Under the pieces are notes generated by a model that saw only the letters and a list, made by a program, of their open reading frames with translations, did not search any database and was not told the DNA's origin. A DNA stretch of 49,832 nucleotides. Source: a virus. Numbering within the stretch: position 1 is the stretch's first letter; every line of letters begins with the position of its first letter. Location: the IMG/VR virus record IMGVR_UViG_3300017934_000060, positions 1-49,832 of that record; one strand, 5' to 3'. The position numbers were made by a program, and so were the translations under genes. This document shows, in pieces, positions 12,735 through 39,522 of the stretch.

Positions 12735-13018
12735 TGCGAAACACTCAGTCCACCGACGACGGGAGCGTAGAAATAGCTCAACACCCGCTTGCCCTTGCTG
12801 TCCTTGACGATGATGCTGCCGCGACCCTCGCTGTCGCGCGGACTGAATACGTGCTTATACATCGCAGTCAGTAGCGACAAATCGGCGGGATTGTGCGCAT
12901 CCAGATGCAGACTGCCCACCATCTCTGTCAGACAGCACGGGCGCTTCAACTTCTTAGCAATGGCCTTGTCGGCACCGCGCTTCCAACCGCGCGATTTCGT
13001 ATTGGCGTGAATCAGCAT
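12731..13018 (-). CDS. Hypothetical protein between Fic and deformylase
   Basis: This is a 95-residue protein starting at an ATG at 13018 behind AAGGAGAATTC. The frame is open upstream, but that part lies in the Fic gene region and lacks a ribosome site. The protein is basic with a CC pair (KRPCCLTEM) near residue 28 and a beta-like second half. The stop overlaps the deformylase start. No family is recognised. Confidence 0.65.
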   Translation of the reverse strand: MLIHANTKSRGWKRGADKAIAKKLKRPCCLTEMVGSLHLDAHNPADLSLLTAMYKHVFSPRDSEGRGSIIVKDSKGKRVLSYFYAPVVGGLSVSQ

Positions 13019-13041
13019 GAATTCTCCTTTGCCGCGAACGG

Positions 13042-13536
13042 CTATGGATTCCTTATCGGTTGTCCCCAGAAGTCGTCGGGCGGACGGATGGGATTCAACA
13101 GCGACCCATTCACCCAATTCAGCTTCAGCAGGATTTTTCCAGTGCGTCCGTTGCCGTCTACGAACGGATGGATGAATTCAAACTCTCGGTAGAAATCCAG
13201 CGGTTCTGCAAATTTTGGCTTTTGGCGCGCTACGAAATCGGTGACCAAGTCAGGTACGTATTCAGGCGGGGGACAAGCTCTGCCTCCTGCCCAAACATTT
13301 ACCAGACGAAAGCCTGACTTGTTCTTTTCCGGCTCAACGTAGCGACCGAGAGATTCTATAAAACGTACAGCCTTAACCGGTCGCGGCCCCCGTGTACCGT
13401 AATACTCGGAAAGGTCGCAGCGCAGAGCGTAAGCCCAAGCGTTCAGCATCCAACCGGTACGCTCAATACCGTCCAGGACGGAGAGATCGTGGCCTTGGCG
13501 TTCCACTTCGTCGGCGATATAGTCGATGACGTTCAC
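13042..13536 (-). CDS. Fic/DOC family protein
   Basis: Fic enzymes transfer AMP or another nucleotide-derived group onto target proteins; phage Doc is a kinase of EF-Tu. This 164-residue protein carries the signature HPFVDGNGRTG at residues 123-133, including the catalytic His and the anion-binding GNGR. The last basic position of the classic motif is Lys here, not Arg. No clear inhibitory (S/T)xxxE(G/N) helix is visible, and no antitoxin-like partner is recognised next to it. A host-directed modification during infection is the simplest idea. It lies in a close-packed leftward cluster with a deformylase. Confidence 0.88.
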   Translation of the reverse strand: MNVIDYIADEVERQGHDLSVLDGIERTGWMLNAWAYALRCDLSEYYGTRGPRPVKAVRFIESLGRYVEPEKNKSGFRLVNVWAGGRACPPPEYVPDLVTDFVARQKPKFAEPLDFYREFEFIHPFVDGNGRTGKILLKLNWVNGSLLNPIRPPDDFWGQPIRNP

Positions 13537-22474: not shown

Positions 22475-22741
22475 ATGGCGAGTGCACGAAGTCCAAAATT
22501 TCCCTGCCCTGCGTGTGGAAAGGTGGTAGCAGTCACGCGTGTGCTGTTCAGCCACATGGGGCGACACCGCCATAAATGTCCTCACGGACGCGCCTGCCGT
22601 GGCGGAGATCCCTGGGTGAAACGCTGCGATGAGTGCGCGCCGAATCGAGAATCACATCGAAAGGCGGCAGCAATGGCGGAGTTCGAGTGGTCGCAGAAAA
22701 TAGCGAGGCAAAGCCGTGCTGCCAAGTGGACGGTTCAGTGA
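22475..22741 (+). CDS. Zinc-finger protein
   Basis: This is an 88-residue basic protein from ATG 22475 behind GGAAGGGAG. It carries CPAC at about 10-13, then a His/Cys-rich stretch with HMGRHRHKCPHGRAC and CDEC near 58-61, enough for two metal sites. It is the last rightward gene before the repeat cluster at 22.86-23.1 kb. Confidence 0.65.
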   Translation: MASARSPKFPCPACGKVVAVTRVLFSHMGRHRHKCPHGRACRGGDPWVKRCDECAPNRESHRKAAAMAEFEWSQKIARQSRAAKWTVQ

Positions 22742-22860: not shown

Positions 22861-23112
22861 TTTGGGTGTGGTGATATTTTGAGCATATCGCACTTAACCC
22901 TACTGTAATCATATCCGTAGGGCAAATGCTCACGGTTTCAAATGCTATGAGCATTTGCTCAAAATATCACCTCTGCTCAACCCCCCATTGAGCACTGTAA
23001 TTGTATGAGCAGCGGGCAGTTAAGTGCAAATGCTCAAAATATCACACATATATATATAGTCTTTAACTACAAGGACAAGGGGGATGGATTTTCGATGGGG
23101 TTTTATTGCTCA
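22861..23112. repeat. Iteron-like repeat cluster, candidate replication origin
   Basis: This AT-rich non-coding stretch holds about eight copies of TGAGCA/TGCTCA in 250 bases. Three are the 15-mer TGCTCAAAATATCAC: 22956-22970 and 23031-23045 on plus, 22871-22885 on minus. The outer two extend with GTTAAGTG to form an inverted pair. Perfect dyads occur, such as TGAGCA-TT-TGCTCA (22948-22961) and AAATGCT-ATG-AGCATTT (22940-22956). The cluster lies at the 3' side of the AAA ATPase gene and ends inside its last codons. It has the look of replication iterons or a dense operator. A rightward gene ends before it and a leftward one faces it. Confidence 0.6.
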
Positions 23113-24071
23113 AATGGTAACTGGTAGCGCCCGTGACCAGCGTGGATGAGCAGGCCCACTTCGCACATTTCGCTGACGTAGCGGCGGCAGCTGCTGTCAG
23201 GAATGCTGAGAGTGTGGGCCATGTCGATGAGTTCGCGGAGGGTGAATTCCTGCCCGTTCTCGTGGGCCGCCACCAAGGTCTCAAAGCTGGCTTGGGCATC
23301 CGAGGGCGTGCGGGTTTCCAGCGCCGCGTCCTTGCAGGGTATCAGCGCGCCGGCCTTAGTGAACTGCCAGTCTTGGGTACCGCTGGGGGCGACGCTGGTT
23401 TCGATGGTGATGAGGCGGCGGTGATCCGAGGGTGTGAGAGGATCGCGATGGTCGATGCTGAGGAAGGTCGGCGGGCGCTCGGTCCACGCCTGGTTGCCCA
23501 TGAAGCGCTCGATGGCCCTGAGGTGGCTGTTCTCGCGCGGCTTGGCTGACCGGCCGACGGCCACCAGTGCCAGTTTGTGCTTGCCTAGGCTCTCCTCAAT
23601 GTCCTCTAGCAGGCTGGCGACCGGGTTGTAGTCGATGATGGAACCTTGGCGCTGCAGGCGGTAGATGCCGTCCACGAACAACACTTCCAGTTCCGGGCAC
23701 TGTTTGCGGGCGGTCGTGCAGATGGCGTCAAAGGCCGAACCCGTGGAGTCCTTGCTGCGGTCGATGCGCACCTTGACGATGGGCATCTGGCGGGCGCCTA
23801 CGCGCTCGGCTATTTCCTGTATGGCATCGGCGGAGTGACTCAGCGGCACGTAGGCGACGGAGGCCGCATAGGTCGGAAAGTCCATTACTGGCTGTCCGTC
23901 CTCGATGTCGCGCGCCATCTGCACGGCGAAGGTGGACTTGCCGCCGCGGCTGGCCCCGCCGATAAGCAAGATGCCGCGCTGGCGACGCAGCAGGGGATAG
24001 ATGATGTGGGTCTTGGAGTGGTCGGCATCGGCGGGGGTTGGGGTCAGGGATTTCGCGCGCGGAATGGCCAT
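23103..24071 (-). CDS. RepA/KaiC-like AAA ATPase, probable replicative helicase
   Basis: This is a 322-residue P-loop ATPase of the AAA_25/RepA type. Walker A is GGASRGGKST at about 26-35. Walker B is LEVLFVDGIYRL at about 115-126. The core resembles hexameric helicases of the RepA/DnaB superfamily. The C-terminal 80 residues look like a winged helix (FTLRELIDMAHTLSIP, then CRRYVSEMCEVGLL), which could bind origin DNA. It is the only leftward gene for some distance and abuts an iteron-like cluster, so helicase loading at that origin is likely. ATGs at 24107 and 24071 are possible; a -10 box touches the first, so I chose the second. No primase gene was recognised. Confidence 0.75.
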   Translation of the reverse strand: MAIPRAKSLTPTPADADHSKTHIIYPLLRRQRGILLIGGASRGGKSTFAVQMARDIEDGQPVMDFPTYAASVAYVPLSHSADAIQEIAERVGARQMPIVKVRIDRSKDSTGSAFDAICTTARKQCPELEVLFVDGIYRLQRQGSIIDYNPVASLLEDIEESLGKHKLALVAVGRSAKPRENSHLRAIERFMGNQAWTERPPTFLSIDHRDPLTPSDHRRLITIETSVAPSGTQDWQFTKAGALIPCKDAALETRTPSDAQASFETLVAAHENGQEFTLRELIDMAHTLSIPDSSCRRYVSEMCEVGLLIHAGHGRYQLPFEQ

Positions 24072-24107: not shown

Positions 24108-24135
24108 CCTATAACAATGGTGGGTGGGGTTGCAA
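24108..24135 (-). promoter_or_regulatory. Promoter for the RepA-like ATPase
   Basis: On the minus strand TTGCAA (24135-24130) and TATAGG (24113-24108) are 16 bases apart. It faces away from the rightward promoter at 24167, so the two form a divergent pair. Confidence 0.4.
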
Positions 24136-24166
24136 GGATTAGGTAAAACTTTTTTACACTTTTTGT

Positions 24167-24196
24167 TTGACAACTGCATCACCGTAGAACTATCCT
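24167..24196 (+). promoter_or_regulatory. Rightward promoter before the SLOG/DinG genes
   Basis: A perfect TTGACA (24167-24172) is followed after 18 bases by TATCCT (24191-24196). Only 13 bases separate the -10 from the ATG at 24210, so the leader is very short. Confidence 0.6.
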
Positions 24197-24209
24197 TCGA
24201 TGGCTCTTT

Positions 24210-24458
24210 ATGGAACCCCACTTCATTGACTTGCTGCATAGTGAGCTGCCTTCCCCAGCGCCTGCCGACGGGCCTGCACAGACGGTAAGGTTCGCCCACT
24301 GGCGCGAAATCTGGCAGGGCCAGCGGGCAGCCAAGGCTCTGCATATTTCGTTTAATACCTACATCCGGGCCGTGGTGGGGGCGTACAGCGAGACGGTGCT
24401 GGCCAGAGTGGGGAAAGGTCGCGGTAAGCGCCGTCGGCGCCGCAACGGTGCCGCCTAA
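24210..24458 (+). CDS. Hypothetical small protein with basic tail
   Basis: This is an 82-residue protein with a helical core and a C-terminal run of Arg/Lys (GKGRGKRRRRR) suited to nucleic-acid binding. It is the first gene after the promoter at 24167. No ribosome site precedes the ATG, which fits a near-leaderless start. The stretch ALHISFNTYIRAVVGAY resembles a short helix-turn-helix but is not conclusive. Confidence 0.55.
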   Translation: MEPHFIDLLHSELPSPAPADGPAQTVRFAHWREIWQGQRAAKALHISFNTYIRAVVGAYSETVLARVGKGRGKRRRRRNGAA

Positions 24459-25072: not shown

Positions 25073-26815
25073 ATGATCCCGCGCCACAACCACACCTCGA
25101 TCGTTACCATCTCGCCGCACGCAATTGCCACGCCCCGCGGCGCTCCTGTTCCTCGCGACTTTGGTTTGCCGGAAAAGTTCTCCGCTTGGCGTCCGGGTCA
25201 ATGGGACGCCATACAGCTAATTCTGGATTCCCCGCAGCGTTTCATCGTGCTGTGTTGCCCGACCGGTAGCGGCAAATCGGTCACCTCCGTCGCCGCCGCC
25301 CTCCTGAGCGGTCGCCGCACGGTGATCTGCACGAGCACGAAAGGTCTCCAGACGCAGTACGTCGAGACCTTGGGAGAACTCCTCCATGACGTGCGGGGAA
25401 TGGCTAACTACACTTGTCCCATCGCGCCGCAGTTAGGTTTATCTGAGCGTACCAGCGTGGCAGAGGCTCCGTGCCAATGTGGTTATCCGTGTGCGTTGAG
25501 ATTCAACGGCGGATGCGAATACTTCTCCCGTTATCGCGCTGCCCAGAGCGCGCCGTTGGTTATTGCAAATTTACAAGCATGGCAATTCGACGCTCTCAAG
25601 GGCTCGGACGGTCTGCATATCCCGCAGGATATCTACGACCCAGACGATGAGAAAGACCCGCGCATACCGATAGATATGCTCGTGGCGGACGAGGCATCAG
25701 ACTGCGGAGAGGAATTAAGTAGGTTCATCGGCGTCCAGATATCTCGCCGTGAGTGTCTCCAGCTCCACTTGGACTGGCCCGACCAGGGACTCGGGATGCC
25801 CGACTGGCGGCAGTGGGCGGGAGTCAACCATCTGGCCGTGACCCGCCGCTTGGAGGAGTGGCAAAGTAGACTACGCAACGGCCAAGGTGGCGGCAATGGC
25901 TCGGGTCGCGGCTGGTCGAGGGAGTTCAAGTTGCTCAGGGATATGCAACGGAAACTCTCTCGCCTCTCCACTGTCCGCGCCGAGGACGACTGGGTGATGG
26001 ACGAGCAGACGACCGAGGGCGATGGTGACATGTATGCCATGAGGTTCGCTCCCTTGTCGCCCGCGAGGTATGCCGAACAAGCCCTGTGGAGGAGCGTCAA
26101 AAAGATTGTGCTGATGTCGGCCACCATCCGGCCCAAGACCTGTGAGTTGCTGGGGATTCCACCTGACGAGATGGTGTTCGCCGAGTATCCGTCCACTTTC
26201 CCCCGTGAGCGGCGGCCCATCATCGTAGTTCCCTCAGTGCAATTAAATTACCGCACTGAACTCGACGACCATACGATGATCCGCTGGTTGCACAGAATTG
26301 ACGCCGTCATCGCCAAGCGCCTTGACCGCAAGGGCGTCATTCACAGCCATAGCTACAAGCGAGCCAAGTTCCTGAAGGACAACTCCGAGTTCGGCCAGTA
26401 CATGATGATTCATGACGCCGCCAGCCGGGCAGATATCGTAGAGGAGTTCCGTCGCTCGACGCCACCCGCCATTCTGGTCTCGCCCAGTGTCGGCACCGGT
26501 TACGATTTCAAAGACAACGAGGCCAGATGGATTATCGTCGCCAAACTCCCCTTCGCGTCCGTCTCCGACAAACTGGTGAAGGCCCGCCAGCAGCGCGACT
26601 CTGAATACTCCACGTTCATGGCGGCGCAGGCACTAATCCAAATGACGGGACGTGCGACGAGGGCGGCGACCGACTGGAGCGAGGTTTTGCTGATGGACGA
26701 CAGTTTCGACAACTGGTTTTACCGGCGAGCCAGAAAGTTCATGCCCGCTTGGTGGACGGAGAGCGTCGAGTGGGCGCAGGGCGTACCGGAGCCATTGGAG
26801 GAACCACAACCATGA
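25073..26815 (+). CDS. DinG/XPD-like superfamily 2 DNA helicase
   Basis: This is a 580-residue helicase. Motif I is CPTGSGKS at about 61-68, motif II is VADEAS at about 203-208, and the C-terminal RecA-like half has SPSVGTGYDF and motif VI QMTGRATRA near 525-533. Cys between motifs I and II (TCP, CQCGYPC, GGCEYF) match the iron-sulfur cluster region of DinG/XPD enzymes, which unwind 5'-to-3'. It probably serves phage replication or recombination with the nearby exonuclease and annealing ATPase. The frame contains one AGATATCT (25737-25744). Confidence 0.88.
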   Translation: MIPRHNHTSIVTISPHAIATPRGAPVPRDFGLPEKFSAWRPGQWDAIQLILDSPQRFIVLCCPTGSGKSVTSVAAALLSGRRTVICTSTKGLQTQYVETLGELLHDVRGMANYTCPIAPQLGLSERTSVAEAPCQCGYPCALRFNGGCEYFSRYRAAQSAPLVIANLQAWQFDALKGSDGLHIPQDIYDPDDEKDPRIPIDMLVADEASDCGEELSRFIGVQISRRECLQLHLDWPDQGLGMPDWRQWAGVNHLAVTRRLEEWQSRLRNGQGGGNGSGRGWSREFKLLRDMQRKLSRLSTVRAEDDWVMDEQTTEGDGDMYAMRFAPLSPARYAEQALWRSVKKIVLMSATIRPKTCELLGIPPDEMVFAEYPSTFPRERRPIIVVPSVQLNYRTELDDHTMIRWLHRIDAVIAKRLDRKGVIHSHSYKRAKFLKDNSEFGQYMMIHDAASRADIVEEFRRSTPPAILVSPSVGTGYDFKDNEARWIIVAKLPFASVSDKLVKARQQRDSEYSTFMAAQALIQMTGRATRAATDWSEVLLMDDSFDNWFYRRARKFMPAWWTESVEWAQGVPEPLEEPQP

Positions 26816-27072
26816 CCAGAGTCTATGATTCCTTACTCACGCAAGCCGGTCACGACTGGGGCGAGCACGCGACCGACGCTTGGAACCACGCCGCCCGCGC
26901 CCTCAACTCGCTGGCCAAACTATTGCTGACGGCCGTCATCGGGTTGTGTTTCGCCGTGGCATGGGTGGCTGATTACGTCGTCCGCTATCTGGAACGCGAC
27001 GGACGCCACGGACACGGTGAGCGTGAGGGTCGTGAGCGGGCCGCTCCGGTGGTTGACCAAATTGGTACTTGA
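26812..27072 (+). CDS. Small membrane protein
   Basis: This is an 86-residue protein from ATG 26812, overlapping the helicase stop by four bases behind GGAGGA. One transmembrane helix (about residues 36-58, LLLTAVIGLCFAVAWVADYV) is followed by a charged, His/Arg-rich tail. Function unknown. Confidence 0.6.
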   Translation: MTRVYDSLLTQAGHDWGEHATDAWNHAARALNSLAKLLLTAVIGLCFAVAWVADYVVRYLERDGRHGHGEREGRERAAPVVDQIGT

Positions 27073-27130
27073 CACGCCGGGGGTCGGGGAGATATCTTAC
27101 GGGGCACTTGACAATCGGCGTGTAACATGC
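27069..27130 (+). promoter_or_regulatory. Tandem early promoter elements with both repeat motifs
   Basis: TTGACA (27069-27074) is followed after 18 bases by TATCTT (27093-27098), whose -10 lies inside AGATATCT (27090-27097). A second TTGACA (27108-27113) is followed by TGTAACATGC (27121-27130), the element also present at 20373. Both signals overlap the end of the membrane-protein gene. Confidence 0.55.
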
Positions 27131-27131
27131 A

Positions 27132-27467
27132 ATGGTTAATGCTATGGCACACATGAGACCGCGACACGGAGCCAAGACCGCCAAAGGCGAGACCGAGACC
27201 GATAAGGCGACGACCAAACCCAGATTCAAGCCCCGCCACTGTGAGGCCCGCAAATGTCCGGTCAAGGGCGGTCGTCTATTCACGCCCCTGACCTCCTGGC
27301 AGAAGTTCTGCTCCCATGCTTGTGGTAACAGCGAGCGCCACCAGCGCGTGTGGGACCGGTACCGCCGGTGGCGCGACCAGCAGCGCGGCCAGCAGCGCGG
27401 CCAGCAGCGCGGCAAGAAAGATTCGCAAGTCTCGCAGGTTTCCGTCAAACCCTCGGTAAGCGCCTGA
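27132..27467 (+). CDS. Zinc-binding basic protein with tandem QQRG repeats
   Basis: This is a 111-residue protein (an ATG at 27144 is also possible; neither has a ribosome site). CEARKC at about 37-42 and CSHAC at about 60-64 form a treble-clef-like zinc site, followed by a very basic helix RHQRVWDRYRRWRD. A 12-base unit is repeated three times without change (27378-27413), giving Gln-Arg-Gly repeats. A nucleic-acid-binding role is likely from charge alone. Confidence 0.6.
   Translation: MVNAMAHMRPRHGAKTAKGETETDKATTKPRFKPRHCEARKCPVKGGRLFTPLTSWQKFCSHACGNSERHQRVWDRYRRWRDQQRGQQRGQQRGKKDSQVSQVSVKPSVSA
27378..27413 (+). repeat. Three perfect 12-bp tandem repeats in coding sequence
   Basis: The unit CAGCAGCGCGGC occurs three times head to tail and encodes a Gln-Gln-Arg-Gly repeat. 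Identity at the third codon positions implies recent slippage expansion. Confidence 0.8.
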
Positions 27468-27564
27468 CGACCCAGTGACCGGCCAACATCGGCATCGCTG
27501 GCCATCCGGACGTTCACCTTCAACCTCAACCCTTTAACCATCGATGGAAGGAGCATTACTCGAA

Positions 27565-28491
27565 ATGGCCATTCAGAAGAAACCCAATGCCAAACCTGCC
27601 GCCGTCGCCAGCCGGGCACCCGCTCGGCCGACTGCACGCGCGGCGGCACAACCCGCAACCGCACGCGCTGCCGAACCCGATGAGCAGCTCGTACCCATGA
27701 ACGTACTCTCCAGCGGTCTGGTCGATGACATCGACGGAACCGTCACCGACGTTGCCGCCGTGGAGTGGGATATGAACGGCAAAGCCCCTCTCGGTCCCTA
27801 CTTGGCTGTCGAGTGGACAGACCCGAATGGCGCTGCACACGTCGAGTATTACTCGAACGGGACACTGCAGGACTGGCGAGCGGCTAAGAGCGGTCGCGGT
27901 TTTGTCGCCGCCAGTGGCAAGACCATGATAAGCCAAGTCAGCAACTTGGGTTACCTGCTGGAATCGCTGCGTATAGCTGGCTTCCCGCAGGATGACCCCA
28001 ATCTTGCTGCTGGCGACCTGCAGGCGGCGCTGACCGGCCTCAAGGCGCACGTCCTGCGCAAGAGCATTGAGCGCAAAGGGCTGGTGCGGCGCCCCAGCGA
28101 CACAGACAGACAGAGTGCGGGGCCGCTGTTGGTGACCAAGATCATCCAGTTACCGACAGGTGATGAGGTTGCCGCCTCGGTTGCGGCCAAGACGACTGCC
28201 GCCTCTAGCAAAGGCAACAGCCACGCCGAGGCCGCAACCGTCGAAGCCTCGGATATGGACACCCAGGTCGTAGGGGCTTTGGTCGCGGCTCTCTCAGAGG
28301 AAGGCGTGGAGGCGATCGACAAGAAGCAGATCAGCAAGATCGTCTTCCAGACCTTCACCGAAGCCGGAGCCACACCGGTCGAGAGGTCCAAGGCCATCGT
28401 GCGCTGCGGCCAGCAGGAGTTTCTGAAGTCGCTGGCTGAGCAGGGCATTGAGTATGATGGCGCGCAGATCCGCTGGGCGCAGACGCAGTAA
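27565..28491 (+). CDS. Hypothetical early protein with Ala-rich N-terminus
   Basis: This is a 308-residue protein. ATG 27565 follows GGAAGGAG; an ATG at 27544 precedes that site. Residues 1-40 are an Ala/Pro/Arg disordered tail. Residues about 45-160 look like a compact beta-rich domain (VEWDMNGKAPLGPYLAVEW). The C-terminal 90 residues are helical. Abundant early proteins of this layout are often single-strand DNA binding, but no OB-fold signature is clear. It is followed by a strong terminator. Confidence 0.6.
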   Translation: MAIQKKPNAKPAAVASRAPARPTARAAAQPATARAAEPDEQLVPMNVLSSGLVDDIDGTVTDVAAVEWDMNGKAPLGPYLAVEWTDPNGAAHVEYYSNGTLQDWRAAKSGRGFVAASGKTMISQVSNLGYLLESLRIAGFPQDDPNLAAGDLQAALTGLKAHVLRKSIERKGLVRRPSDTDRQSAGPLLVTKIIQLPTGDEVAASVAAKTTAASSKGNSHAEAATVEASDMDTQVVGALVAALSEEGVEAIDKKQISKIVFQTFTEAGATPVERSKAIVRCGQQEFLKSLAEQGIEYDGAQIRWAQTQ

Positions 28492-28552
28492 ACAGGGTCG
28501 GCGTCAACCGTTTAATTTCGGAGGCCACCGTGGGATGATGGCTTCCGGGTCT

Positions 28553-28595
28553 GGGAGATGCTGGAGTGACTGCCTCCGGCGTCTCCCGATTTTTC
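28553..28595 (+). terminator. Rho-independent terminator
   Basis: A 14-bp stem (28553-28566 with 28574-28587, two G-T pairs) closes a 7-base loop and is followed by GATTTTTC. It ends the transcript of the preceding gene. The stem-loop is the strongest rightward terminator in the window. Confidence 0.88.
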
Positions 28596-28617
28596 AACCA
28601 CAATAAGGAGACCAGCC

Positions 28618-29082
28618 ATGCCAGCCACGGCTAAAGCAGCCCCGATTCCAGAGTCGAAGTGGAAGTGGTTTGGCGATGCTGGACATTTTATTTGTTCGCA
28701 GTGGTGCCAGTTTCACCTCTGCACCCTAGTCGGCAAATATCTCATCTCGACGGTCGGCAAGTAGCCGGACGAGGGTACGCGCGAGATTACTGCCAACTGT
28801 CGCGGTATCCATCTGGAAGGCCGGGGCGATGAGCGGCTGGCAGATTACATGCAGAAGATCGGTTATGAAACGATGGGGGCTAGCCCGCACATTTTCGAGA
28901 CGATGGTGTTCAAGGCCGGGAAACCTTGCACTGCCGCGCAATGCAACTGTGGATTGCCGGAGATCGACCCGACGGAGTTAGACGGCACGCGCTACATGAC
29001 CGCCGGCGAGGCAACCAAGGGGCACTACAAATTCTGCCGCAAGTTCGCCCGCCTGAAACGCGAGGTGCCCAATGCCAGCTAA
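28618..29082 (+). pseudogene. Conserved-type phage gene with in-frame amber codon
   Basis: ATG 28618 follows AAGGAG and opens a 154-codon frame interrupted only by TAG at 28762-28764 (codon 49). Sequence on both sides is strongly protein-like: WKWFGDAGHFICSQWCQFHL and KYLISTVGK before, GIHLEGRGDERLADYM and HIFETMVFKAGKPC after. I recall a common phage protein family with this layout and no stop. Expected sequence at the gap is close to STVGEYxPD, so the TAG probably replaced a Tyr or Gln codon. The gene is either inactive or needs readthrough. The downstream part could restart at ATG 28849. Confidence 0.7.
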
Positions 29083-29446
29083 AGCAGCCCAACATACACC
29101 GGGACCATGGACGATTCGGCCCGTGTTTATCGCCCAGAAGGACTCCCAGTCGCTTCACTTCGGCGAATACGCTCTGAACTTGTGGGGTATCGCTGGCCGC
29201 TCTACTCGGCTCAACACCTCGCCAACTCTTCCGCGCTGCGAAGCAGAAGCGAACGCCCTGCTCATGGCCGCCGCGCCGGAACTGCTGGAAGCGCTGGAAA
29301 ATCTGACCGCGCTCATAGGAAATGATCTTGTGCGGAACACGGCAGAGGACTCTAACTTCATGGCGTTTACGCGCCAAAGCGTACGAATCGTTGAAGTACT
29401 CAAGCAGGCCGAATCCCTGCTCGCCCGCCTGAAAGGTGGTGAGTGA
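29072..29446 (+). CDS. Conserved-type small phage protein (HTPGPW family)
   Basis: This is a 124-residue protein. It starts with a QHTPGPWTI motif, and its middle is EANALLMAAAPELLEALENL. Both segments recur in small phage and prophage proteins of unknown function. It is helical after residue 60. The ATG overlaps the previous gene by eleven bases. No biochemical role is known. Confidence 0.75.
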   Translation: MPAKAAQHTPGPWTIRPVFIAQKDSQSLHFGEYALNLWGIAGRSTRLNTSPTLPRCEAEANALLMAAAPELLEALENLTALIGNDLVRNTAEDSNFMAFTRQSVRIVEVLKQAESLLARLKGGE

Positions 29447-29670
29447 TGGCCGACATGCGCCGACTTCTCAACCGACTGACGTGCTGGCTCCTTGGTCACA
29501 TCTACGTCACTCGGGCGTCTGCGCCGCAGTTGCTTCGTTGCCTTCTCAATCCCAAAACTGAAAGCTATTGTCTGCGTTGCCTGCATGAGCGGGAATCGCT
29601 GGCCGAGAATTTTTTCAAGAAGTCGCCGCTGCAAGAACGACTGGAAAATCAATGTCCGACATCCCGCTAG
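29446..29670 (+). CDS. Hypothetical small protein
   Basis: This is a 74-residue basic protein from ATG 29446, overlapping the previous stop. It has an N-terminal amphipathic helix (LLNRLTCWLLGHIYV) that may touch the membrane, and CLRC near residue 45. No family is recognised. Confidence 0.55.
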   Translation: MADMRRLLNRLTCWLLGHIYVTRASAPQLLRCLLNPKTESYCLRCLHERESLAENFFKKSPLQERLENQCPTSR

Positions 29671-29819
29671 TTCGGCAGTACGGCGATATCACTGTATCGC
29701 GAGGGGATGACGGTAAGGTGCGAACCACGACCGCCGCCGATGACACCCCGCTCGCCGAGTTGGAGTCGGCGATCGGCAAATTTCTGGACGAGGAACGCAA
29801 TGGTCGGCAGGGTTCCTGA
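29652..29819 (+). CDS. Hypothetical acidic microprotein
   Basis: This is a 55-residue acidic frame that overlaps both neighbours. It has a short beta-like start and a C-terminal helix. The ribosome site is weak, and support comes mainly from packing and composition. Confidence 0.5.
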   Translation: MSDIPLVRQYGDITVSRGDDGKVRTTTAADDTPLAELESAIGKFLDEERNGRQGS

Positions 29820-30081
29820 ACTCGGTGGGATGTATCTCTGCGAATGGCTCGACCACTCCTGCGGCAACTCTTGGACGCCCGTTGAGTTCGCATCAAAGGA
29901 AAACAAGGCGGCGCGAATCCTCAGCGTCGGCTGGCTCGTGGCGGTTTCCAAACAGGCCATCACGCTCGCAGCATCTTGGGACGACCCGACGCGACAGTAC
30001 ACGGATTATCAAATCGTGCTACGGTCGGATATCGTCAGCCTGAAAAGAATCCATGCGAAGTCGATAAAGTTGGAGTCATGA
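29800..30081 (+). CDS. Conserved-type small phage protein
   Basis: This is a 93-residue protein from ATG 29800 behind GAGGA. It contains YLCEWLDHSCGNSWTPVEF and RILSVGWLVAVSKQAITLA, a pattern (D-x-C...W, then SVGWLV) that I recall from small hypothetical proteins of many phages. It should fold as a compact beta domain. Role unknown. Confidence 0.65.
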   Translation: MVGRVPELGGMYLCEWLDHSCGNSWTPVEFASKENKAARILSVGWLVAVSKQAITLAASWDDPTRQYTDYQIVLRSDIVSLKRIHAKSIKLES

Positions 30082-30314
30082 CCACTGATAAAGAGACATC
30101 GTGTCATGTACGGGTCGGCGACATCGTTAAATTCCAGCTCAATGCACCATTTTGTTCGCCCCAAGACCGCGCCAAAGTGAAAGAGGTTGTGCCTAACTGT
30201 CGTTGTGAGTCCGGCTTCATGGTCGAGGTATGGTTCATCATTGACGGATTCCCAGACGGTTACAGCAAAATGTCGGAGTATGTGGACTCCAACTGGCTAG
30301 AGCGGGTGTCATGA
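30078..30314 (+). CDS. Hypothetical small protein
   Basis: This is a 78-residue protein from ATG 30078, overlapping the previous stop by four bases. Residues 10-75 look like a small beta barrel (VRVGDIVKFQL, then MVEVWFIIDGF) with Cys at several positions. No family is recognised. Confidence 0.6.
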   Translation: MTTDKETSCHVRVGDIVKFQLNAPFCSPQDRAKVKEVVPNCRCESGFMVEVWFIIDGFPDGYSKMSEYVDSNWLERVS

Positions 30315-30907
30315 TTGTCCGAGAATTCACCCCCGAACCCAGCTATCCCCGCTGCATCCTCGGCCCGCCGTCGCCGACGCCCGTGCGCTCCACCCATCGT
30401 CCGCACCTGACCGATATTCTGCGCGATATGGCCACCACGGCGGGCATCGGCAAAGAGACGGGCGAGTTCAGCCAGCGGGATTTAGAGTGGTTTGCGGCAG
30501 GTGGCTGGTTGTTTGAAAGAGTATTCGATATGGCTCATCAAGAAGCCATAGACCGCGGCGACATGTGGTCGCCAGGAGAATTGGAACTGGATGGAATTGT
30601 GGGTACCCCTGACCGTATCGACTGGACGCGACCGGCGGTAATCGAACTGAAGTGCAGATGGAAGTCCTCGCGGAAGTTCGATGCGCTCGAAAAAGAGTTC
30701 TGCATTGAGTTGATGCAGGTGAAGGGCTACTGCTGGATGTTGAAGATTCTGGAAGCCGACCTCATCGTGTTTTTCGTTGCTGGCCGATGGTCGTCGTCGA
30801 TTGTCCCCGAAGTGCGCGCCGCGAACCTCAGATTCACGGAGCAAGAACTAGCGGAGAATTGGCGGTCGGTTTTGCTGCACGCCAAGCGCATGGGAGTGCT
30901 AAAATAG
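30311..30907 (+). CDS. PD-(D/E)XK nuclease, RecB/lambda-exonuclease-like
   Basis: This is a 198-residue protein. The nuclease core is GTPDRIDWTRPAVIELKCRW at about 98-117, with Asp of PD and the E-x-K (IELK) that bind metal. A preceding Glu-rich helix and a following Gln (LMQVKGYCW) complete the fold. Phages use such enzymes to resect DNA ends for single-strand annealing. The Sak4-like ATPase about 1.2 kb downstream is a natural partner. It overlaps the previous gene by four bases. Confidence 0.82.
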   Translation: MIVREFTPEPSYPRCILGPPSPTPVRSTHRPHLTDILRDMATTAGIGKETGEFSQRDLEWFAAGGWLFERVFDMAHQEAIDRGDMWSPGELELDGIVGTPDRIDWTRPAVIELKCRWKSSRKFDALEKEFCIELMQVKGYCWMLKILEADLIVFFVAGRWSSSIVPEVRAANLRFTEQELAENWRSVLLHAKRMGVLK

Positions 30908-30913
30908 GGGGAT

Positions 30914-30936
30914 GTCGGGAGTTGTAAGCTCCCGGC
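30914..30936 (+). other. Hairpin upstream of the HNH gene
   Basis: GTCGGGAG and CTCCCGGC pair across a 7-base loop (one G-T pair). The stem is followed by CAAAAAG, not T residues, so it is probably not a terminator on this strand. It lies between the nuclease stop and the HNH start and may limit read-in or mark an insertion edge. Confidence 0.4.
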
Positions 30937-30965
30937 AAAAAGCCTAATCGCTGATTGGAGCGACC

Positions 30966-31631
30966 GTGACATCCCCTCAGAAGAATTATCGCACACTCGC
31001 CGAATGGCTGGCCGATGCCGTAAAGAGGCGCGACCCCGATAAATGCCTGATGTGGCCATGGGGTTGCGACAAAGACGGCTACGGAAAACTGACCATTCGG
31101 GTAGATGGGGAAATGATGCATGTGCGCGCACACCGCTTATCTTTCTATCTCGTCCGCAAGAGATGGCCGGAGCCGTACGGACTCCACAACTGTGATACTC
31201 CCGGGTGCTTTAATCCCGCTCACATCTACGAGGGAGATGCGCGGAAAAACAACGAAGACATGGCCAACAGGAACCGGTCGTGTTATGGAGAGAAAAATAA
31301 CACAACCGTACTAACGGAAAAGATCGTCGTTCAATCTCGCAAGGAATATGCTGCCGGGGCCACATTTGCCGTATTGGCCGCGCGTTACGGAGTGACCAAG
31401 CAGACCATGCGATATGCAGTTATCGGAAAGAACTGGAGACGGGTTAAAGGAGCCGTGAAACCCCGACCGAGCGCAGCGGTTTCATGGACGCACTGTAAAC
31501 GCGGTCATCCGTTGACGCCAAGCAACTGTTACAACTCTAAGAGTGGTGGTCGATGCTGCCGAACTTGTGCCATAGCGAGAGCCTCGTTGTATTACCAACT
31601 GCATCGAACCGGTAAACAGGAGCAAAGATGA
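30966..31631 (+). CDS. HNH homing endonuclease
   Basis: This is a 221-residue protein. The HNH_3 core spans about 53-98: VRAHRLSFYLV, then LHNCDTPGCFNPAHIYEGDARKNN split across the catalytic His and Asn. A helix-turn-helix-like segment (FAVLAARYGVTKQTMRYAV) follows, then a C-terminal Cys cluster with CKRGHPLT and CCRTC. This is the free-standing homing enzyme type common in phages. Start GTG 30966 is preceded by GGAG. It is inserted between nuclease and recombinase genes. Confidence 0.85.
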   Translation: MTSPQKNYRTLAEWLADAVKRRDPDKCLMWPWGCDKDGYGKLTIRVDGEMMHVRAHRLSFYLVRKRWPEPYGLHNCDTPGCFNPAHIYEGDARKNNEDMANRNRSCYGEKNNTTVLTEKIVVQSRKEYAAGATFAVLAARYGVTKQTMRYAVIGKNWRRVKGAVKPRPSAAVSWTHCKRGHPLTPSNCYNSKSGGRCCRTCAIARASLYYQLHRTGKQEQR

Positions 31632-31873
31632 ACAGGCATAAGATTCGCAATCGACCGGTACCATCGCCAGAGAAACCGCGTGAACCGGGAGTGCACGCCT
31701 GCCGTACGGATGAGGCTACCGGCGAGATTATCTACATGGAAGATCAGATCATGGAGATGGAACTCAGGCGCAAACTCGCGGAGGGGGAGATGGTGCGGCA
31801 CAAAAACGGCAATCCGTTGGACAATCGCAGGAGCAACTTGGAGGTCGTGCAGATATCTCCATTTCGCGCTTGA
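31628..31873 (+). CDS. Short HNH-like fragment protein
   Basis: This is an 81-residue protein. Its last part, MVRHKNGNPLDNRRSNLEVV, matches the second half of an HNH_3 site (H-x-N-G, then N-R-x-x-N-L). The usual leading catalytic His region is reduced. ATG 31628 follows CAGGAG and overlaps the HNH gene. It may be a remnant of a second homing endonuclease or a small nicking domain. Confidence 0.6.
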   Translation: MNRHKIRNRPVPSPEKPREPGVHACRTDEATGEIIYMEDQIMEMELRRKLAEGEMVRHKNGNPLDNRRSNLEVVQISPFRA

Positions 31874-31899
31874 CTTAACCATGTAACACGTGATACACG
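31870..31899 (+). promoter_or_regulatory. Early promoter with TGTAACACGTGATACA operator
   Basis: TTGACT (31870-31875) is followed six bases later by TGTAACACGTGATACA (31882-31897), covering the spacer and the likely -10 (GATACA, 31892-31897, 16-base spacing). It shares TGTAACACGTG with the reverse complement of the 18475 element. AGATATCT lies just upstream (31851-31858). Confidence 0.55.
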
Positions 31900-31906
31900 A
31901 TACCTG

Positions 31907-32116
31907 ATGCGCGATATGGCTAGAGTGACCGAGACGACGATAGACCGGAAGACCTTGCGGCGTTTGCAGCGCGGACTGACCGTGCTCACCGTCCGCTTCG
32001 CGCCGCCTGCCAAGGGCGTCAGTACCGCCTTGATACAGGCCATATTGTCGGATTTGAAAAATCTCGGTCTTGAAGACGTATCCATAGAATTCGATTCGCG
32101 TAAGAAAGGAACCTGA
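31907..32116 (+). CDS. Hypothetical small protein before the annealing ATPase
   Basis: This is a 69-residue protein after the promoter at 31870. It has a helix-rich start and an LEDVSIEFDSR beta segment. An ATG at 31916 is also possible, and no ribosome site is visible. No family is recognised. It is two bases from the Sak4-like gene, so a joint role is possible. Confidence 0.55.
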   Translation: MRDMARVTETTIDRKTLRRLQRGLTVLTVRFAPPAKGVSTALIQAILSDLKNLGLEDVSIEFDSRKKGT

Positions 32117-32118
32117 CC

Positions 32119-32949
32119 ATGGCTATCCCCCGCCGTCCGCAACCCGCCGCCGCCACTGCTGGTGAGTCCGCCGAACCCGCACCGTCGGTCATTCGACGGC
32201 CCACACCGAGACCCGCTGCCTCTGTCAAATCCACATTCGTCCGCTCCTCCGCTGTCACCAAAGAGCGGCTCATTATGAGCATCGAAGGCGAGGAGAAGTC
32301 GGGAAAATCGCATACTGGACTTACGGCCCAAACTCCCATTTTTGTGCACTCCTTCGATATCGGATTGGAGGGCGTTATCTCCAAGTTCGATAAGGACAAG
32401 GAAATCTACGTCGCTGAGTACGAGTTGACCATCCAGCCGGGGGCAGGTAGCGCTCAAGAGGTAGCGGAGGCCGCCGACGAAGTCTGGAACCAGTTCGTCG
32501 CCAACTATCGGGACTCGTTGGCCTCGACACGTAACGCCGGTACGGTAATTTGGGATTCGTCAACTGAATGTTGGGAGTTGCTGCGTCTCGCGCGCTTCGG
32601 CAAGCTCACTCAGGTCATGCCGCACCAGTACACCAGCGTCAATGCTGAGATGCGCGACCTGATACGCGAGGCTTACGCCTCCACCAACATGATTCACCTC
32701 ATCAAGAAGGTCGACCAGTACGAGAACTACGTCGATTCTCAGGGCCGGGAAAAGGGGCGCAAGACCGGACTGAAGGAACCCAAGCAATTCAAAGACCTGC
32801 CATTTTTGGTACAGACCATTACGGAAGTGGAAAGGGTAGGTGCTGCCGATTTTCAGTTAACGATCAAGGATTGCCGTCAGAACCCCGAGGTCAACGGCGT
32901 AACCATACCGAACGATTTTGAAGTACTGCTTATGACGGTATTTTCATAA
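32119..32949 (+). CDS. Sak4-like RecA-fold ATPase (AAA_24)
   Basis: This is a 276-residue protein. After a disordered Ala/Pro N-terminus (1-45), the RecA-like core begins with Walker A GEEKSGKSH at about 56-64; a Walker B-like VIWDSST follows at about 140-146. The layout fits AAA_24/Sak4 phage proteins, which promote single-strand DNA annealing with an SSB and a resecting nuclease. ATG 32119 follows AAAGGA. The PD-(D/E)XK enzyme upstream and DinG-like helicase fit a recombination module. Confidence 0.8.
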   Translation: MAIPRRPQPAAATAGESAEPAPSVIRRPTPRPAASVKSTFVRSSAVTKERLIMSIEGEEKSGKSHTGLTAQTPIFVHSFDIGLEGVISKFDKDKEIYVAEYELTIQPGAGSAQEVAEAADEVWNQFVANYRDSLASTRNAGTVIWDSSTECWELLRLARFGKLTQVMPHQYTSVNAEMRDLIREAYASTNMIHLIKKVDQYENYVDSQGREKGRKTGLKEPKQFKDLPFLVQTITEVERVGAADFQLTIKDCRQNPEVNGVTIPNDFEVLLMTVFS

Positions 32950-32965
32950 CGGAAGAGTCTGTTCC

Positions 32966-33331
32966 ATGCCTGCCCGATGGCTACCTAAACGACTTGATAA
33001 GCGCGAGGTGCTGGACTGTCTTTTACCTAACCTGTACGTGGCGGGCAAGCGTAATTGCTGGATTTGGGTGAACCCCCACGGTCGAGTAGAGCGCTATCCG
33101 CAGCGCGATATTGGCGGGAAACCGTACAGGCTCGCAGCTCTGTTGCTTTGGGCTCTGGGCTGGACGGATGAAGTGTTGGCAGGAGATCGCAGCGTGTTTC
33201 GCGCTTTCTGCCGCTGGTGTAGACGAGTGACCAACCATTGTGGTCGTTGCCGAGAATGTCTGGAATGCAGTTGTGACTGCCGCGATGAGATAGATGTATT
33301 GAACGAGGTATCCGACAATGCAAATCGCTGA
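32966..33331 (+). CDS. Cys-rich hypothetical protein
   Basis: This is a 121-residue basic protein. The C-terminus is a dense Cys cluster (CRWCRRV, then HCGRCRECLECSCDC) with at least eight Cys, enough for two zinc ions. The first half has many aromatic residues. It overlaps thyX by 14 bases. Function unknown; metal-dependent DNA or RNA binding is plausible. Confidence 0.6.
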   Translation: MPARWLPKRLDKREVLDCLLPNLYVAGKRNCWIWVNPHGRVERYPQRDIGGKPYRLAALLLWALGWTDEVLAGDRSVFRAFCRWCRRVTNHCGRCRECLECSCDCRDEIDVLNEVSDNANR

Positions 33332-33965: not shown

Positions 33966-34022
33966 CGTCTTGGTGCGCCTGCATCGCTGAAGTCGATGGC
34001 CAAGATTCGATAGAGGATTGCG

Positions 34023-35062: not shown

Positions 35063-35069
35063 CTATAAT
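35041..35069 (+). promoter_or_regulatory. Possible promoter with perfect -10
   Basis: TATAAT (35064-35069) directly follows the ERCC4 gene. A weak -35 (TATTCA, 35041-35046) is 17 bases upstream. It may allow the HNH gene its own expression, as is common for inserted homing genes. Confidence 0.4.
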
Positions 35070-35106
35070 GGCGACGCTGCATCACGAAGGCTTTCTAGGA
35101 GCCGCC

Positions 35107-36860: not shown

Positions 36861-36876
36861 TTGAGCCAAGTGACCT

Positions 36877-39522
36877 GTGCCTTACCCCTCCACCTTCCGC
36901 CGCTCTACCTCGGCCAATCCATTCCAGCGCCAGCCGCAGCGCGTGCCGGGCGTTGGGCCACAGCCTTGTCGCTGTATGCTGGTGGCCGAACGCCCTGGCC
37001 GAGAAGAAGCTATCCATAGGCCAAAACCCATGCCCTTGGTCGGGCTGAGCGGTCGCTATTTCGATGTCTACACGCAGGCCGCCAACGTCGAGCGCGCTGA
37101 CTGCTACATCACCAACTTGGTCAAGGATTTCCGCGAATACGCCAAGCCCACCGCCGCCGATATCGCTGCCGACCACGATGAACTGGTTCAGGAGATCCGC
37201 GATTGCGACCCGGAGGTTATCGGGCTAATCGGCGCGTGGGCGGTGGAGAACGTCATGGGCAAGCAGCGGGCCGACATTGAGCGCACCCACGGCGTTCCTG
37301 TCCACGTTGATGCGCTGTTCGGCGGCGAACTCTCCCGTCCGCAGGGCTACATCTGCCTGCCTATACTGCATCCGGCCAACGTCATTCATCAGCCGGAGAT
37401 GGCCCCTCAGGTTCTGGACGACTTTCTCACCTTGGGCAAACTGCTGGACGGCGAAATCACAGTGCGCGAGACCGACCCGTACGAGGGCAAGGAAAATTAC
37501 GCCGTCCAGCCGTGCGATGAGGCCAGAATAATTCTCCCTGCCGGAGTGGACACCGAGGGCGATCGCGCTCGGCCTTGGTGCGTCACCTACGCGACCGTGC
37601 CGGGGGCGGCCTTCATCGCGCATCCCCCCCAGCGCGCCCAGTTCGCTGACTTGGTATGGCTGCACAACTCCCTCCATGATTTGGGAGTACTTCGGGAGCT
37701 AGGCATCGAACTGGCAGAAGATCAGTTCATCGACACCATGGTGCTGGCCTATCATCTCTGTATAGAGCCGCAAGCCCTCAAGTCTCTCGCTTATCGTTAC
37801 TGCGGCGCTGAACGCTCTAGCTACGATGAAATGGTAGCCCCGGCGCAGGAAGCTATCTCTCTCGCTTACCTGATGCAGGTTATCGAACGCAGCGAGCAAT
37901 GGCCGCTACCGGAACCCGAAGTCATCTATGAAGGCGGTAACCTGCGCGTCTACAAGCCTCAATCCATTTTCCGCCGCGCCAACAAGATCCTCACAGACTA
38001 TATGGAGTGGCAGACGGGCAAGCGTGAGAAGTCCGTGGACATCCGCGAACGCTGGAGACAGATCGACTACAAGTTGCGCGCTCCTGTCATCGCCGCGTTG
38101 GGTGACATGCGACACGCTGATCTGTCCGACATTGAGTACGGCAAAGCGATGACCTATGCTTGCCACGATGCCTCCGATACGCTGCGCGTCGGCCCCATCT
38201 TGATGGAGAAAATCAAGGCCATGGAATTGGAGGAGGCCGTCAAGGTCGATCACGACATCCTCGCGATGGTGGATCGCATGCAAACCGTGGGCATTCAGCT
38301 CGCGCCCCCCTCGTTCTGGGACGATATGGAGCACCGTTGCCAGCAGCAGATGGATAAGGCGCGCTGGCAGATTTACCAGATGACAAGTCGCGACCTCAAT
38401 CCTGCCTCAGGGGATCAGGTAGCCGACCTGCTGTATGGTGCGACGGTGGACGGCGGCTTGGCCTTGACGCCACCGATGCTGACCGACGGCGGCAAGACCG
38501 GCAAACGACGCGGTTCAACCAACGACAAGTGTTTGGAGAACTTGCTAGCTGAGACGTCCGTGGTGCAGCCCATCATGGATTACCGTGAGGCTGACAAGAT
38601 ACGGGGCACCTACGTCGAGCCTCTACGCGAGATTGCTTCTACTGGCGATGGACGGGTGCGGGCGACGTTTCGGGTCACGCGCACCACCAGCGGGCGCCTC
38701 TCTACGGCGGAACCCAATCTGCAATCGCTGCCCATCATGTCGGAGTTAGGTGTGCGGATACGTTACGGTCTGATTGCCCGTCTCGGCTGGACGCTGTACG
38801 ACGCCGACCTCTCCCAGATCGAGATGCGGGTCATGGCCCACGAGTCGCGTGATGAGCGCCTGTGTCAAGTGTTCTACGACCATCGCGACATTCACGCCAT
38901 GAGCGCCCACGTCATGTTCGGCACGTCTATCGAACAGGTAACGAAGTGGCAACGCAATGCTGCGAAGCACGTAAATTTTGGAATAATTAACGGTACCACG
39001 GAGCACGGCTTGGTGAACCAGATGATTCTCTATCGGGCCACCCGGGAGGATGGTTCGCGCTGGACGCTAGATGACTGTGCCAACATGATACGTGAATGGT
39101 TCGGCTACTACAAGGGGGTTAAAAGATTCCAGAACGCGTGCATCGCAGAAACCCAGCAGACGGGCCTGACGCGGGAGAATATCAGCGGGCGTATTCGTTA
39201 TTTGCCAGGGGTCTGGGCTCCGCAGAAGGTGGTGCGGGAGGAAGCCGAGCGTTGCAGCTATGTGCATAAAGTGCAGGGGGGCGCACAGGCCTTGTTGAAG
39301 CGGGCGATGAAGGTGATGTGGGATGGTCTCAAGCACCTTGACGGCGTCGAGCCTTTATTGCAGGTGCATGACGAGCAAATCTGGGAGGTACGCGATGAGG
39401 AGTCGCTCAGAGAACTGGTGGACTTGACGGTGATTCATGCCATGACCACCACGACGAAGTTACGGGTGCCGGTTGAGGCGGATGGAGGGTTCGGTGACAG
39501 TTGGGGGTCAGCGAAACAATGA
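36877..39522 (+). CDS. Family A DNA polymerase with N-terminal uracil-DNA-glycosylase-like domain
   Basis: This is an 881-residue fusion. Residues about 30-190 resemble family 4/5 uracil-DNA glycosylases: AERPGREE, PLVGLSGRYFD, ITNLVKDF and ILHPANVIH. The 3'-5' exonuclease is intact, with D225-T226-E227, HNSLHDLG and CHDASDT. Polymerase motif A is D642-A-D644-LSQIE, motif B is R693-x3-K697-x3-F701-G-x2-N705-G, and motif C is H831-D832-E833. Motif B normally has Tyr where Asn705 stands. Similar UDG-PolA fusions occur in some phages such as SPO1-like ones. GTG 36877 is the start; upstream sequence is short and lacks a clear ribosome site. This is the replicative polymerase. Confidence 0.92.
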   Translation: MPYPSTFRRSTSANPFQRQPQRVPGVGPQPCRCMLVAERPGREEAIHRPKPMPLVGLSGRYFDVYTQAANVERADCYITNLVKDFREYAKPTAADIAADHDELVQEIRDCDPEVIGLIGAWAVENVMGKQRADIERTHGVPVHVDALFGGELSRPQGYICLPILHPANVIHQPEMAPQVLDDFLTLGKLLDGEITVRETDPYEGKENYAVQPCDEARIILPAGVDTEGDRARPWCVTYATVPGAAFIAHPPQRAQFADLVWLHNSLHDLGVLRELGIELAEDQFIDTMVLAYHLCIEPQALKSLAYRYCGAERSSYDEMVAPAQEAISLAYLMQVIERSEQWPLPEPEVIYEGGNLRVYKPQSIFRRANKILTDYMEWQTGKREKSVDIRERWRQIDYKLRAPVIAALGDMRHADLSDIEYGKAMTYACHDASDTLRVGPILMEKIKAMELEEAVKVDHDILAMVDRMQTVGIQLAPPSFWDDMEHRCQQQMDKARWQIYQMTSRDLNPASGDQVADLLYGATVDGGLALTPPMLTDGGKTGKRRGSTNDKCLENLLAETSVVQPIMDYREADKIRGTYVEPLREIASTGDGRVRATFRVTRTTSGRLSTAEPNLQSLPIMSELGVRIRYGLIARLGWTLYDADLSQIEMRVMAHESRDERLCQVFYDHRDIHAMSAHVMFGTSIEQVTKWQRNAAKHVNFGIINGTTEHGLVNQMILYRATREDGSRWTLDDCANMIREWFGYYKGVKRFQNACIAETQQTGLTRENISGRIRYLPGVWAPQKVVREEAERCSYVHKVQGGAQALLKRAMKVMWDGLKHLDGVEPLLQVHDEQIWEVRDEESLRELVDLTVIHAMTTTTKLRVPVEADGGFGDSWGSAKQ

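What the first reader, a model, noticed from the sequence alone, without database searches (positions are those of the whole stretch)
22861..23112. Iteron-like TGAGCA/TGCTCA cluster beside a RepA-like ATPase
About eight copies of the 6-mer or its complement occur in 250 bases, with three 15-mers TGCTCAAAATATCAC, a long inverted pair and two perfect dyads. The region is AT-rich and non-coding and lies next to the only leftward gene in the early region, a RepA/KaiC-like ATPase. This fits a replication origin with its own initiator/helicase.
Basis: partly seen in the sequence, partly recalled or inferred. Interest (0 to 1): 0.62.

Follow-up and report, generated by a model that had tools for sequence, protein, structure and literature searches.

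The report
Phage origin beside RepA-like helicase
A 180-base, AT-rich stretch of an unknown phage genome, packed with short repeats in both directions and lying just behind the gene of a RepA-like motor protein, is most likely the phage's own replication start site; two other phages have swapped the motor's DNA-gripping end and the neighbouring repeats together, which suggests such proteins read such repeats.

Summary
Nine TGAGCA/TGCTCA copies lie in 22880-23112, eight of them non-coding. No hexamer exceeds 5 in 2000 shuffles. It is by far the strongest short-repeat cluster and the least stable 50-200 bp DNA in the window. The repeats are also the arms of one long nested inverted repeat (z about -6.3 on either strand). 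The cluster lies 3' of the ATPase gene, between convergent genes, so it cannot simply be that gene's operator. The ATPase matches Pfam AAA_25 (the RepA helicase family), with a probable C-terminal winged helix.

Best reading: a replication origin whose repeats are bound by the ATPase's C-terminal domain. The support is comparative. In three of seven other phages or contigs carrying AAA_25 ATPases, the genome's top repeat cluster also abuts that gene, each with its own motif (chance about 4e-4). In MW202867 two of the three DnaA boxes sit beside it. Two Vibrio phages share 98-100% of the ATPase core but differ in its last ~80 residues, and exactly there the repeats switch from ATGTCC to TGTAYTGGGT while the flanks stay nearly identical.

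Nothing shows binding or initiation in this phage. About ten other phages with AAA_25 ATPases show no cluster. New variant of a known kind.

The parts
22866..23050 (.). Nested long inverted repeat: outer arms about 22866-22910 and 23010-23050, inner hairpins 22920-22961 and 22974-22994; candidate origin core
   Evidence: RNA fold z -6.33 (+) and -6.38 (-), DNA fold z -7.0, 0 of 200 shuffles fold as well; the only inverted repeat of its quality in the window
22880..23112 (.). Nine TGAGCA/TGCTCA repeats in both orientations (iteron-like sites)
22871..22885 (-). 15-mer TGCTCAAAATATCAC, copy 1
22956..22970 (+). 15-mer TGCTCAAAATATCAC, copy 2
23031..23045 (+). 15-mer TGCTCAAAATATCAC, copy 3, within the 20-mer GCAAATGCTCAAAATATCAC (23026-23045)
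23019..23070 (.). Least stable 50 bp of the window (ACACATATATATATAG tract): candidate DNA unwinding element
   Evidence: nearest-neighbour stability scan; function inferred
23103..24071 (-). RepA-like RecA-fold ATPase (Pfam AAA_25) with probable C-terminal winged helix (about the last 55 residues); ORF opens at 24344 but the likely start is 24071 (or 24107)
   Evidence: PF13481 29.9 bits against cut-off 27; WHD_MCM8 E 0.003, below cut-off; RecA/RadA/KaiC-like fold hits for a low-confidence model, pLDDT 48
24210..24458 (+). 82-aa ORF resembling a ribbon-helix-helix protein by eye; rival candidate binder of the repeats
   Evidence: translation; no Pfam hit and no match to the relatives' RHH-like model
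24167..24196 (+). sigma-70-like promoter (TTGACA-18-TATCCT) of the rightward replication genes, divergent from the ATPase
   Evidence: a consensus match only
22475..22741 (+). 3' end of the rightward gene convergent with the ATPase (small zinc-finger-like protein)
   Evidence: weak HVO_2753 zinc-finger hit
25073..26815 (+). DinG/XPD-like helicase, first gene of the replication cassette conserved in relatives
36877..39522 (+). Uracil-DNA-glycosylase-domain fused to family A DNA polymerase, last gene of that cassette

Best explanation
The element is the phage's replication origin. The RepA-like ATPase is initiator and probably replicative helicase in one. Its C-terminal winged helix binds the TGCTCA repeats just behind its own gene. 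Several bound protomers, on repeats facing both ways, bend or extrude the nested inverted repeat and open the adjacent AT tract (23019-23070). The RecA-fold ATPase then assembles as a ring on the exposed strand(s), and the phage's own cassette (DinG-like helicase, UDG-PolA and others) extends forks. Shown here: repeats, structure, AT-richness, position, ATPase family, and the recurrence of such clusters beside AAA_25 ATPases. Inferred: binding by the C-terminus (from the paired exchange in Vibrio phages), melting, ring loading and priming.
For: Repeat cluster far beyond chance and unique in the genome. Least stable DNA of the window. Nested inverted repeat. Location between convergent genes, beside an AAA_25 ATPase and the replication cassette. 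Same anatomy with other motifs beside AAA_25 ATPases: contig G023, GTTGTA, 3'; Vibrio phage 19E33.1, 11 ATGTCC plus an AT-rich palindrome, 3', fold z -7.8; MW202867, TGGGACA x8 at the stop codon with two exact DnaA boxes 10-60 bp on, of three in the genome; MW202742, GCGGAAA x6, 5', second best in its genome. In 3 of 7 other whole or nearly whole genomes scanned the top cluster abuts the ATPase, chance 4e-4. Vibrio 19E33.1 against 168E36-1: ATPase 98-100% identical over residues 150-500, about 43% over the last ~80; repeats ATGTCC 11 to 0 and ATTGGGT 0 to 6; block identity 40-59%, flanks 94-100% including the AT-rich palindrome. Published precedent: the pRN1 origin is a stem-loop 3' of its winged-helix replication gene, and phage BIP-1 looks the same (PMC4234260).
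Against: No binding or replication data for this phage. No close homologue of this ATPase, so the paired exchange is seen only in another phage group with about 15% identity. The winged helix of the window protein is a sub-threshold Pfam hit and low-confidence in the model. Of the other AAA_25 phages sampled, about ten show no adjacent cluster (G019, Lebethron, Serbin, a Helicobacter prophage, BFK20, CAM-P21, Pam2, MA12/buks, Baee/RedMaple, Superphikiman; BcepGomr weak), so adjacency is not a rule. Most polymerase relatives of the window lack a recognisable AAA_25 gene. No DnaA box near the cluster in the window. GC skew does not point here.
Confidence: 0.64

Rival explanations
1. Origin or control region bound by another phage protein, such as a ribbon-helix-helix (RHH) protein, with the ATPase only a neighbour or a helicase recruited by it (as RepC binds iterons and RepA unwinds in RSF1010).
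For: 17 or more polymerase relatives carry an RHH-like protein directly upstream of the helicase. Relative L166 has eight GTATGAC repeats in both orientations around a 16-bp palindrome beside that gene, with no ATPase in the stretch held. The window has an RHH-like 82-aa ORF at 24210. RHH proteins classically bind arrays of short sites (general knowledge).
Against: The 24210 ORF has no Pfam hit and no match to the relatives' RHH model and lies 1.1 kb away with its own promoter. Most RHH-bearing relatives show no such cluster. The Vibrio exchange ties the repeats to the ATPase C-terminus, not to an RHH gene.
Confidence: 0.15
2. A transcriptional operator, bidirectional terminator or partition-like site rather than an origin.
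For: Short inverted sites and dyads are also typical of operators (general knowledge); convergent genes, as here, need termination between them.
Against: No gene starts within or just beyond the cluster in either direction; no U-run follows the long stems; no ParA-type gene was recognised; the site is the least stable DNA of the genome, as expected of an origin.
Confidence: 0.12
3. A structured RNA or a miniature inverted-repeat (transposon-like) insertion that only looks like an origin.
For: Strong fold on both strands. A comparable inverted-repeat element of relative L160 is missing from its 93-97% identical relative L161.
Against: No Rfam match; a single copy in the genome; repeats recur inside the element in a binding-site pattern; equal fold z on both strands points to DNA symmetry rather than one RNA.
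Confidence: 0.07

Closest known systems
Archaeal plasmid pRN1 (ORF904) and Bordetella phage BIP-1 origins (PMC4234260)
   Same: Origin lies 3' of the replication-protein gene, is a large stem-loop, and the protein ends in a winged helix; sequence diverges between relatives while the anatomy stays
   Different: Their protein is AEP primase plus SF3 helicase; here it is a RecA-fold AAA_25 ATPase without a recognised primase domain. pRN1 lacks iterons; the window has nine repeats
Phage P4 alpha protein with ori/crr
   Same: Helicase with a C-terminal winged helix that binds short repeats at the origin (as described in PMC4234260)
   Different: P4 alpha carries a TOPRIM primase, absent here. Fold class of the P4 helicase (SF3, from memory) differs from the RecA fold here. 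No second distant repeat region was seen in the window, though MW202742 has its motif at two places
RSF1010 RepA/RepB'/RepC replicon
   Same: RepA-family helicase beside an iteron origin
   Different: In RSF1010 a separate protein, RepC, reads the iterons (PMC4234260); here the ATPase's own C-terminus is proposed to do so
PrimPol-PV1/PrimQH multidomain primases with RepA-type helicase and C-terminal WH (PMC5862659); phage BFK20 gp43-like proteins
   Same: RepA-type ATPase domain followed by a WH suggested to recognise the origin; MW202867 has the Prim-Pol, PriCT-1 and AAA_25 form
   Different: The window protein has no Prim-Pol domain; BFK20 shows no repeat cluster beside gp43 in our scan

Membership tests
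AAA_25 / RepA-type RecA-fold ATPase | Pfam PF13481 score above its curated cut-off, with Walker A and B | tested here: met
   29.9 bits against 27; Walker A GGASRGGKST and Walker B LEVLFVDG read
AAA_25 / RepA-type RecA-fold ATPase | RecA-like fold | tested here: inconclusive
   Foldseek best hits RecA/RadA/KaiC/DnaB, E about 1e-6 to 1e-4, but TM only 0.3-0.4 and mean pLDDT 48
AAA_25 / RepA-type RecA-fold ATPase | Hexameric 5'-3' helicase activity | not testable with these tools
   needs biochemistry
Iteron-type replication origin | Multiple short repeats clustered beyond chance | tested here: met
Iteron-type replication origin | Adjacent AT-rich, easily melted tract | tested here: met
   least stable 50/100/200 bp of the window
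Iteron-type replication origin | Regularly spaced direct repeats | tested here: not met
   repeats face both ways with irregular spacings of 47, 21, 8, 18, 15, 17, 25 and 76 bases between starts
Iteron-type replication origin | Cognate initiator gene next to the repeats and binding them | tested here: inconclusive
   ATPase adjacent; binding not testable; paired exchange of C-terminus and repeats only in Vibrio phages
Iteron-type replication origin | DnaA box (common, not universal) | tested here: not met
   none near the cluster in the window; two beside the MW202867 cluster
P4-alpha / pRN1-type initiator | C-terminal winged helix | tested here: inconclusive
   WHD_MCM8 E 0.003, below cut-off; three C-terminal helices at low confidence; the G023 protein's C-terminus passes MarR_2 and HTH_24 cut-offs
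P4-alpha / pRN1-type initiator | SF3 helicase and primase domain | tested here: not met
   only AAA_25 found
P4-alpha / pRN1-type initiator | Stem-loop 3' of the replication gene (pRN1/BIP-1) | tested here: met
   and gene positions
Known structured RNA | Match to an Rfam family | tested here: not met
   none at gathering threshold

The most novel reading that the evidence does not exclude
A widespread but unrecognised class of phage replicon: a RepA-type RecA-fold helicase carries its own origin-reading C-terminal domain, and that domain plus the repeats behind the gene travel together as an exchangeable specificity cassette, while the helicase core and the melting element stay fixed.
Probability: 0.4. 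Interest if true: 0.72.

Novelty: new variant of a known kind. Interest (0 to 1): 0.56.

Why it matters
Origins of most uncultured phages are unknown, and initiators of the RepA type are usually annotated only as 'AAA ATPase' or 'regulatory protein RepA'. If the C-terminal domain reads the repeats behind its own gene, origins could be predicted from sequence in many phages, and the Vibrio pair gives a ready test of how initiator specificity changes. It would also give a single-protein initiator-helicase of the RecA fold, where the well-studied single-protein cases (P4, pRN1) have other helicase types.

Tried and rejected
GC skew as origin evidence: the minimum near 18 kb coincides with the gene-orientation switch, and third-position skew is inconsistent. 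DnaA boxes near the cluster: none. The 15-mer in other viral contigs: 116 stretches; every listed one holds a single, chance-like match, and no TGAGCA cluster occurs in any locus fetched by then. Direct homologues of the ATPase: none in viral, phage, plasmid or genome collections. Long inverted repeats as a general mark upstream of the helicase in polymerase relatives: only marginal enrichment (p 0.03-0.11), and the L160 element is missing in L161, so dropped as main evidence. Clusters inside likely coding repeats (L154 14 kb, L164, L205) were set aside. Conserved RHH-like protein of relatives as the binder: no HMM match in the window; kept as a rival. Structured RNA: no Rfam match.

Full report
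What was checked. The cluster is real. Nine TGAGCA/TGCTCA copies lie between 22880 and 23112. Shuffling the region 2000 times never gave more than five copies of any hexamer nor more than two of this one. Across the whole window no other 250-bp stretch comes close (score -10.7 against -2.4), and the least stable 50, 100 and 200 bp of the window lie here. The three 15-mers are confirmed and occur nowhere else in the window.

Folding either strand of 22861-23102 gives one nested structure with z of -6.3 to -6.4 (none of 200 shuffles as good), and DNA parameters agree (z -7.0 for 22861-23060). The outer arms run about 40 bases and include the exact 9-mer pair GCACTTAAC/GTTAAGTGC, which is not part of the repeat, so the symmetry is more than a by-product of scattered sites. 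Two hairpins lie inside. It is the only inverted repeat of that quality in the window, and such repeats are rare in 1.4 Mb of relatives' DNA.

Position. The ATPase gene reads leftward and ends at 23103. The gene on the other side reads rightward and ends at 22741. The cluster therefore lies between two gene ends. It is about 1 kb from the ATPase start, so it is not that gene's operator. The 413-aa ORF is over-long; the likely start is 24071 or 24107, leaving divergent promoters near 24110-24210 (for the rightward one).

The ATPase and its setting. It scores above the Pfam cut-off for AAA_25, the family of RepA helicase (29.9 against 27). Its last 55 residues give a weak winged-helix hit (WHD_MCM8, E 0.003). 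A three-sequence AlphaFold model is poor overall (pLDDT 48), with a better core that matches RecA, RadA, KaiC and DnaB folds. The window is a phage record of 49832 bases with portal and terminase genes. Its replication cassette runs from a DinG-like helicase (25073) to a uracil-glycosylase-domain/PolA fusion (36877), and parts of it recur in order in many IMG/VR contigs.

Comparison with other AAA_25 phages. Since no homologue of this ATPase could be found directly, I looked at the family at large. One polymerase relative, G023, has an AAA_25 ATPase with a clear C-terminal HTH, and directly 3' of it seven GTTGTA repeats in both orientations, including GGTTGTATTACAACC. Vibrio phage 19E33.1 has 11 ATGTCC repeats and an AT-rich palindrome 3' of its AAA_25 gene. 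MW202867 has eight TGGGACA repeats starting at the stop codon of its Prim-Pol/AAA_25 gene, with two of its three exact DnaA boxes 10-60 bp further on. MW202742 has six GCGGAAA repeats 5' of its gene and more of the same motif at 34.5 kb. In G023, 19E33.1 and MW202867 this is the top cluster of the genome. Three of seven by chance has probability 4e-4; this treats the choice of phages as independent of the result, and they came from one tblastn list plus two polymerase relatives. MW202711 has its second-best cluster, GGGACA x9, 1.4 kb 3' of its gene. Ten or so other AAA_25 phages show no cluster, so the arrangement is common but not general.

A natural exchange. Vibrio phages 19E33.1 and 168E36-1 have AAA_25 proteins that are nearly identical for 500 residues and only about 43% identical over the last ~80. 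The DNA difference begins in the codons of that last domain and continues through the repeats: 11 ATGTCC become none, and ATTGGGT goes from none to six (TGTAYTGGGT). Identity then returns to 94-99% at the AT-rich palindrome. Core and melting element stay while the C-terminal domain and the repeats change as one block. The simplest explanation is that the domain reads the repeats. This is inference from two genomes of another phage group, not a binding result, and a block exchange of neighbouring DNA could also occur without a functional link.

Mechanism proposed. By analogy with pRN1 and phage BIP-1, whose proposed origins are stem-loops 3' of winged-helix replication genes (PMC4234260), and with the suggestion that C-terminal WH domains of RepA-type primase-helicases recognise origins (PMC5862659): the ATPase binds TGCTCA sites through its C-terminus, several protomers distort the inverted repeat, the AT tract at 23019-23070 opens, and the RecA-fold domains load as a ring. 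Who primes is unknown; the conserved unknown proteins at 27544 and 30311 are candidates only by position.

Rivals. An RHH-like protein conserved upstream of the helicase in relatives, with a similar cluster in L166, is the main alternative binder. Operator, terminator, RNA and insertion readings are less likely for the reasons listed.

Novelty. Iteron origins, stem-loop origins 3' of the initiator gene, and initiator-helicases with winged helices are all known. What is new as far as the tools show is the combination with a RepA-type RecA-fold ATPase in phages, and the evidence that C-terminus and repeats are exchanged together.

Noticed in passing
window 25073-39522: Replication cassette (DinG-like helicase, two unknown proteins, AAA_24 ATPase, ERCC4/XPF-type nuclease with HHH, UDG-PolA fusion) conserved in order in many IMG/VR contigs; no primase was recognised among its proteins.
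   Followed up: partly
L205 13423-14136, L199 9954-10622, L166 729-1145 and other relatives: A conserved ~200-aa protein with an RHH-like N-terminal part sits directly upstream of the helicase in 17 or more relatives but is not recognisable in the window.
   Followed up: partly
L166 350-560: Eight GTATGAC repeats in both orientations around a 16-bp AT-rich palindrome upstream of the RHH-like gene and helicase: likely the origin or operator of that phage.
   Followed up: partly
L154 7131-7162 and 7269-7300: A perfect 32-bp inverted repeat in an AT-rich gap between the glycosylase-domain gene and the polymerase gene.
   Followed up: no
L160 1094-1210 against L161: An inverted-repeat element with TATGGACAGT repeats is present in one and missing in a 93-97% identical relative: mobile, dispensable or lost in assembly.
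   Followed up: no
L199 11510-14182: The helicase reading frame holds a long insertion ending in NYIANGIVMHNS, which looks like an intein, with an HNH-like ORF (12429-13085) inside.
   Followed up: no
L222 34526-34776: MW202742 has a second, stronger cluster of its GCGGAAA motif near the terminase gene, 6 kb from the one beside repA, reminiscent of the ori/crr pair of P4.
   Followed up: no
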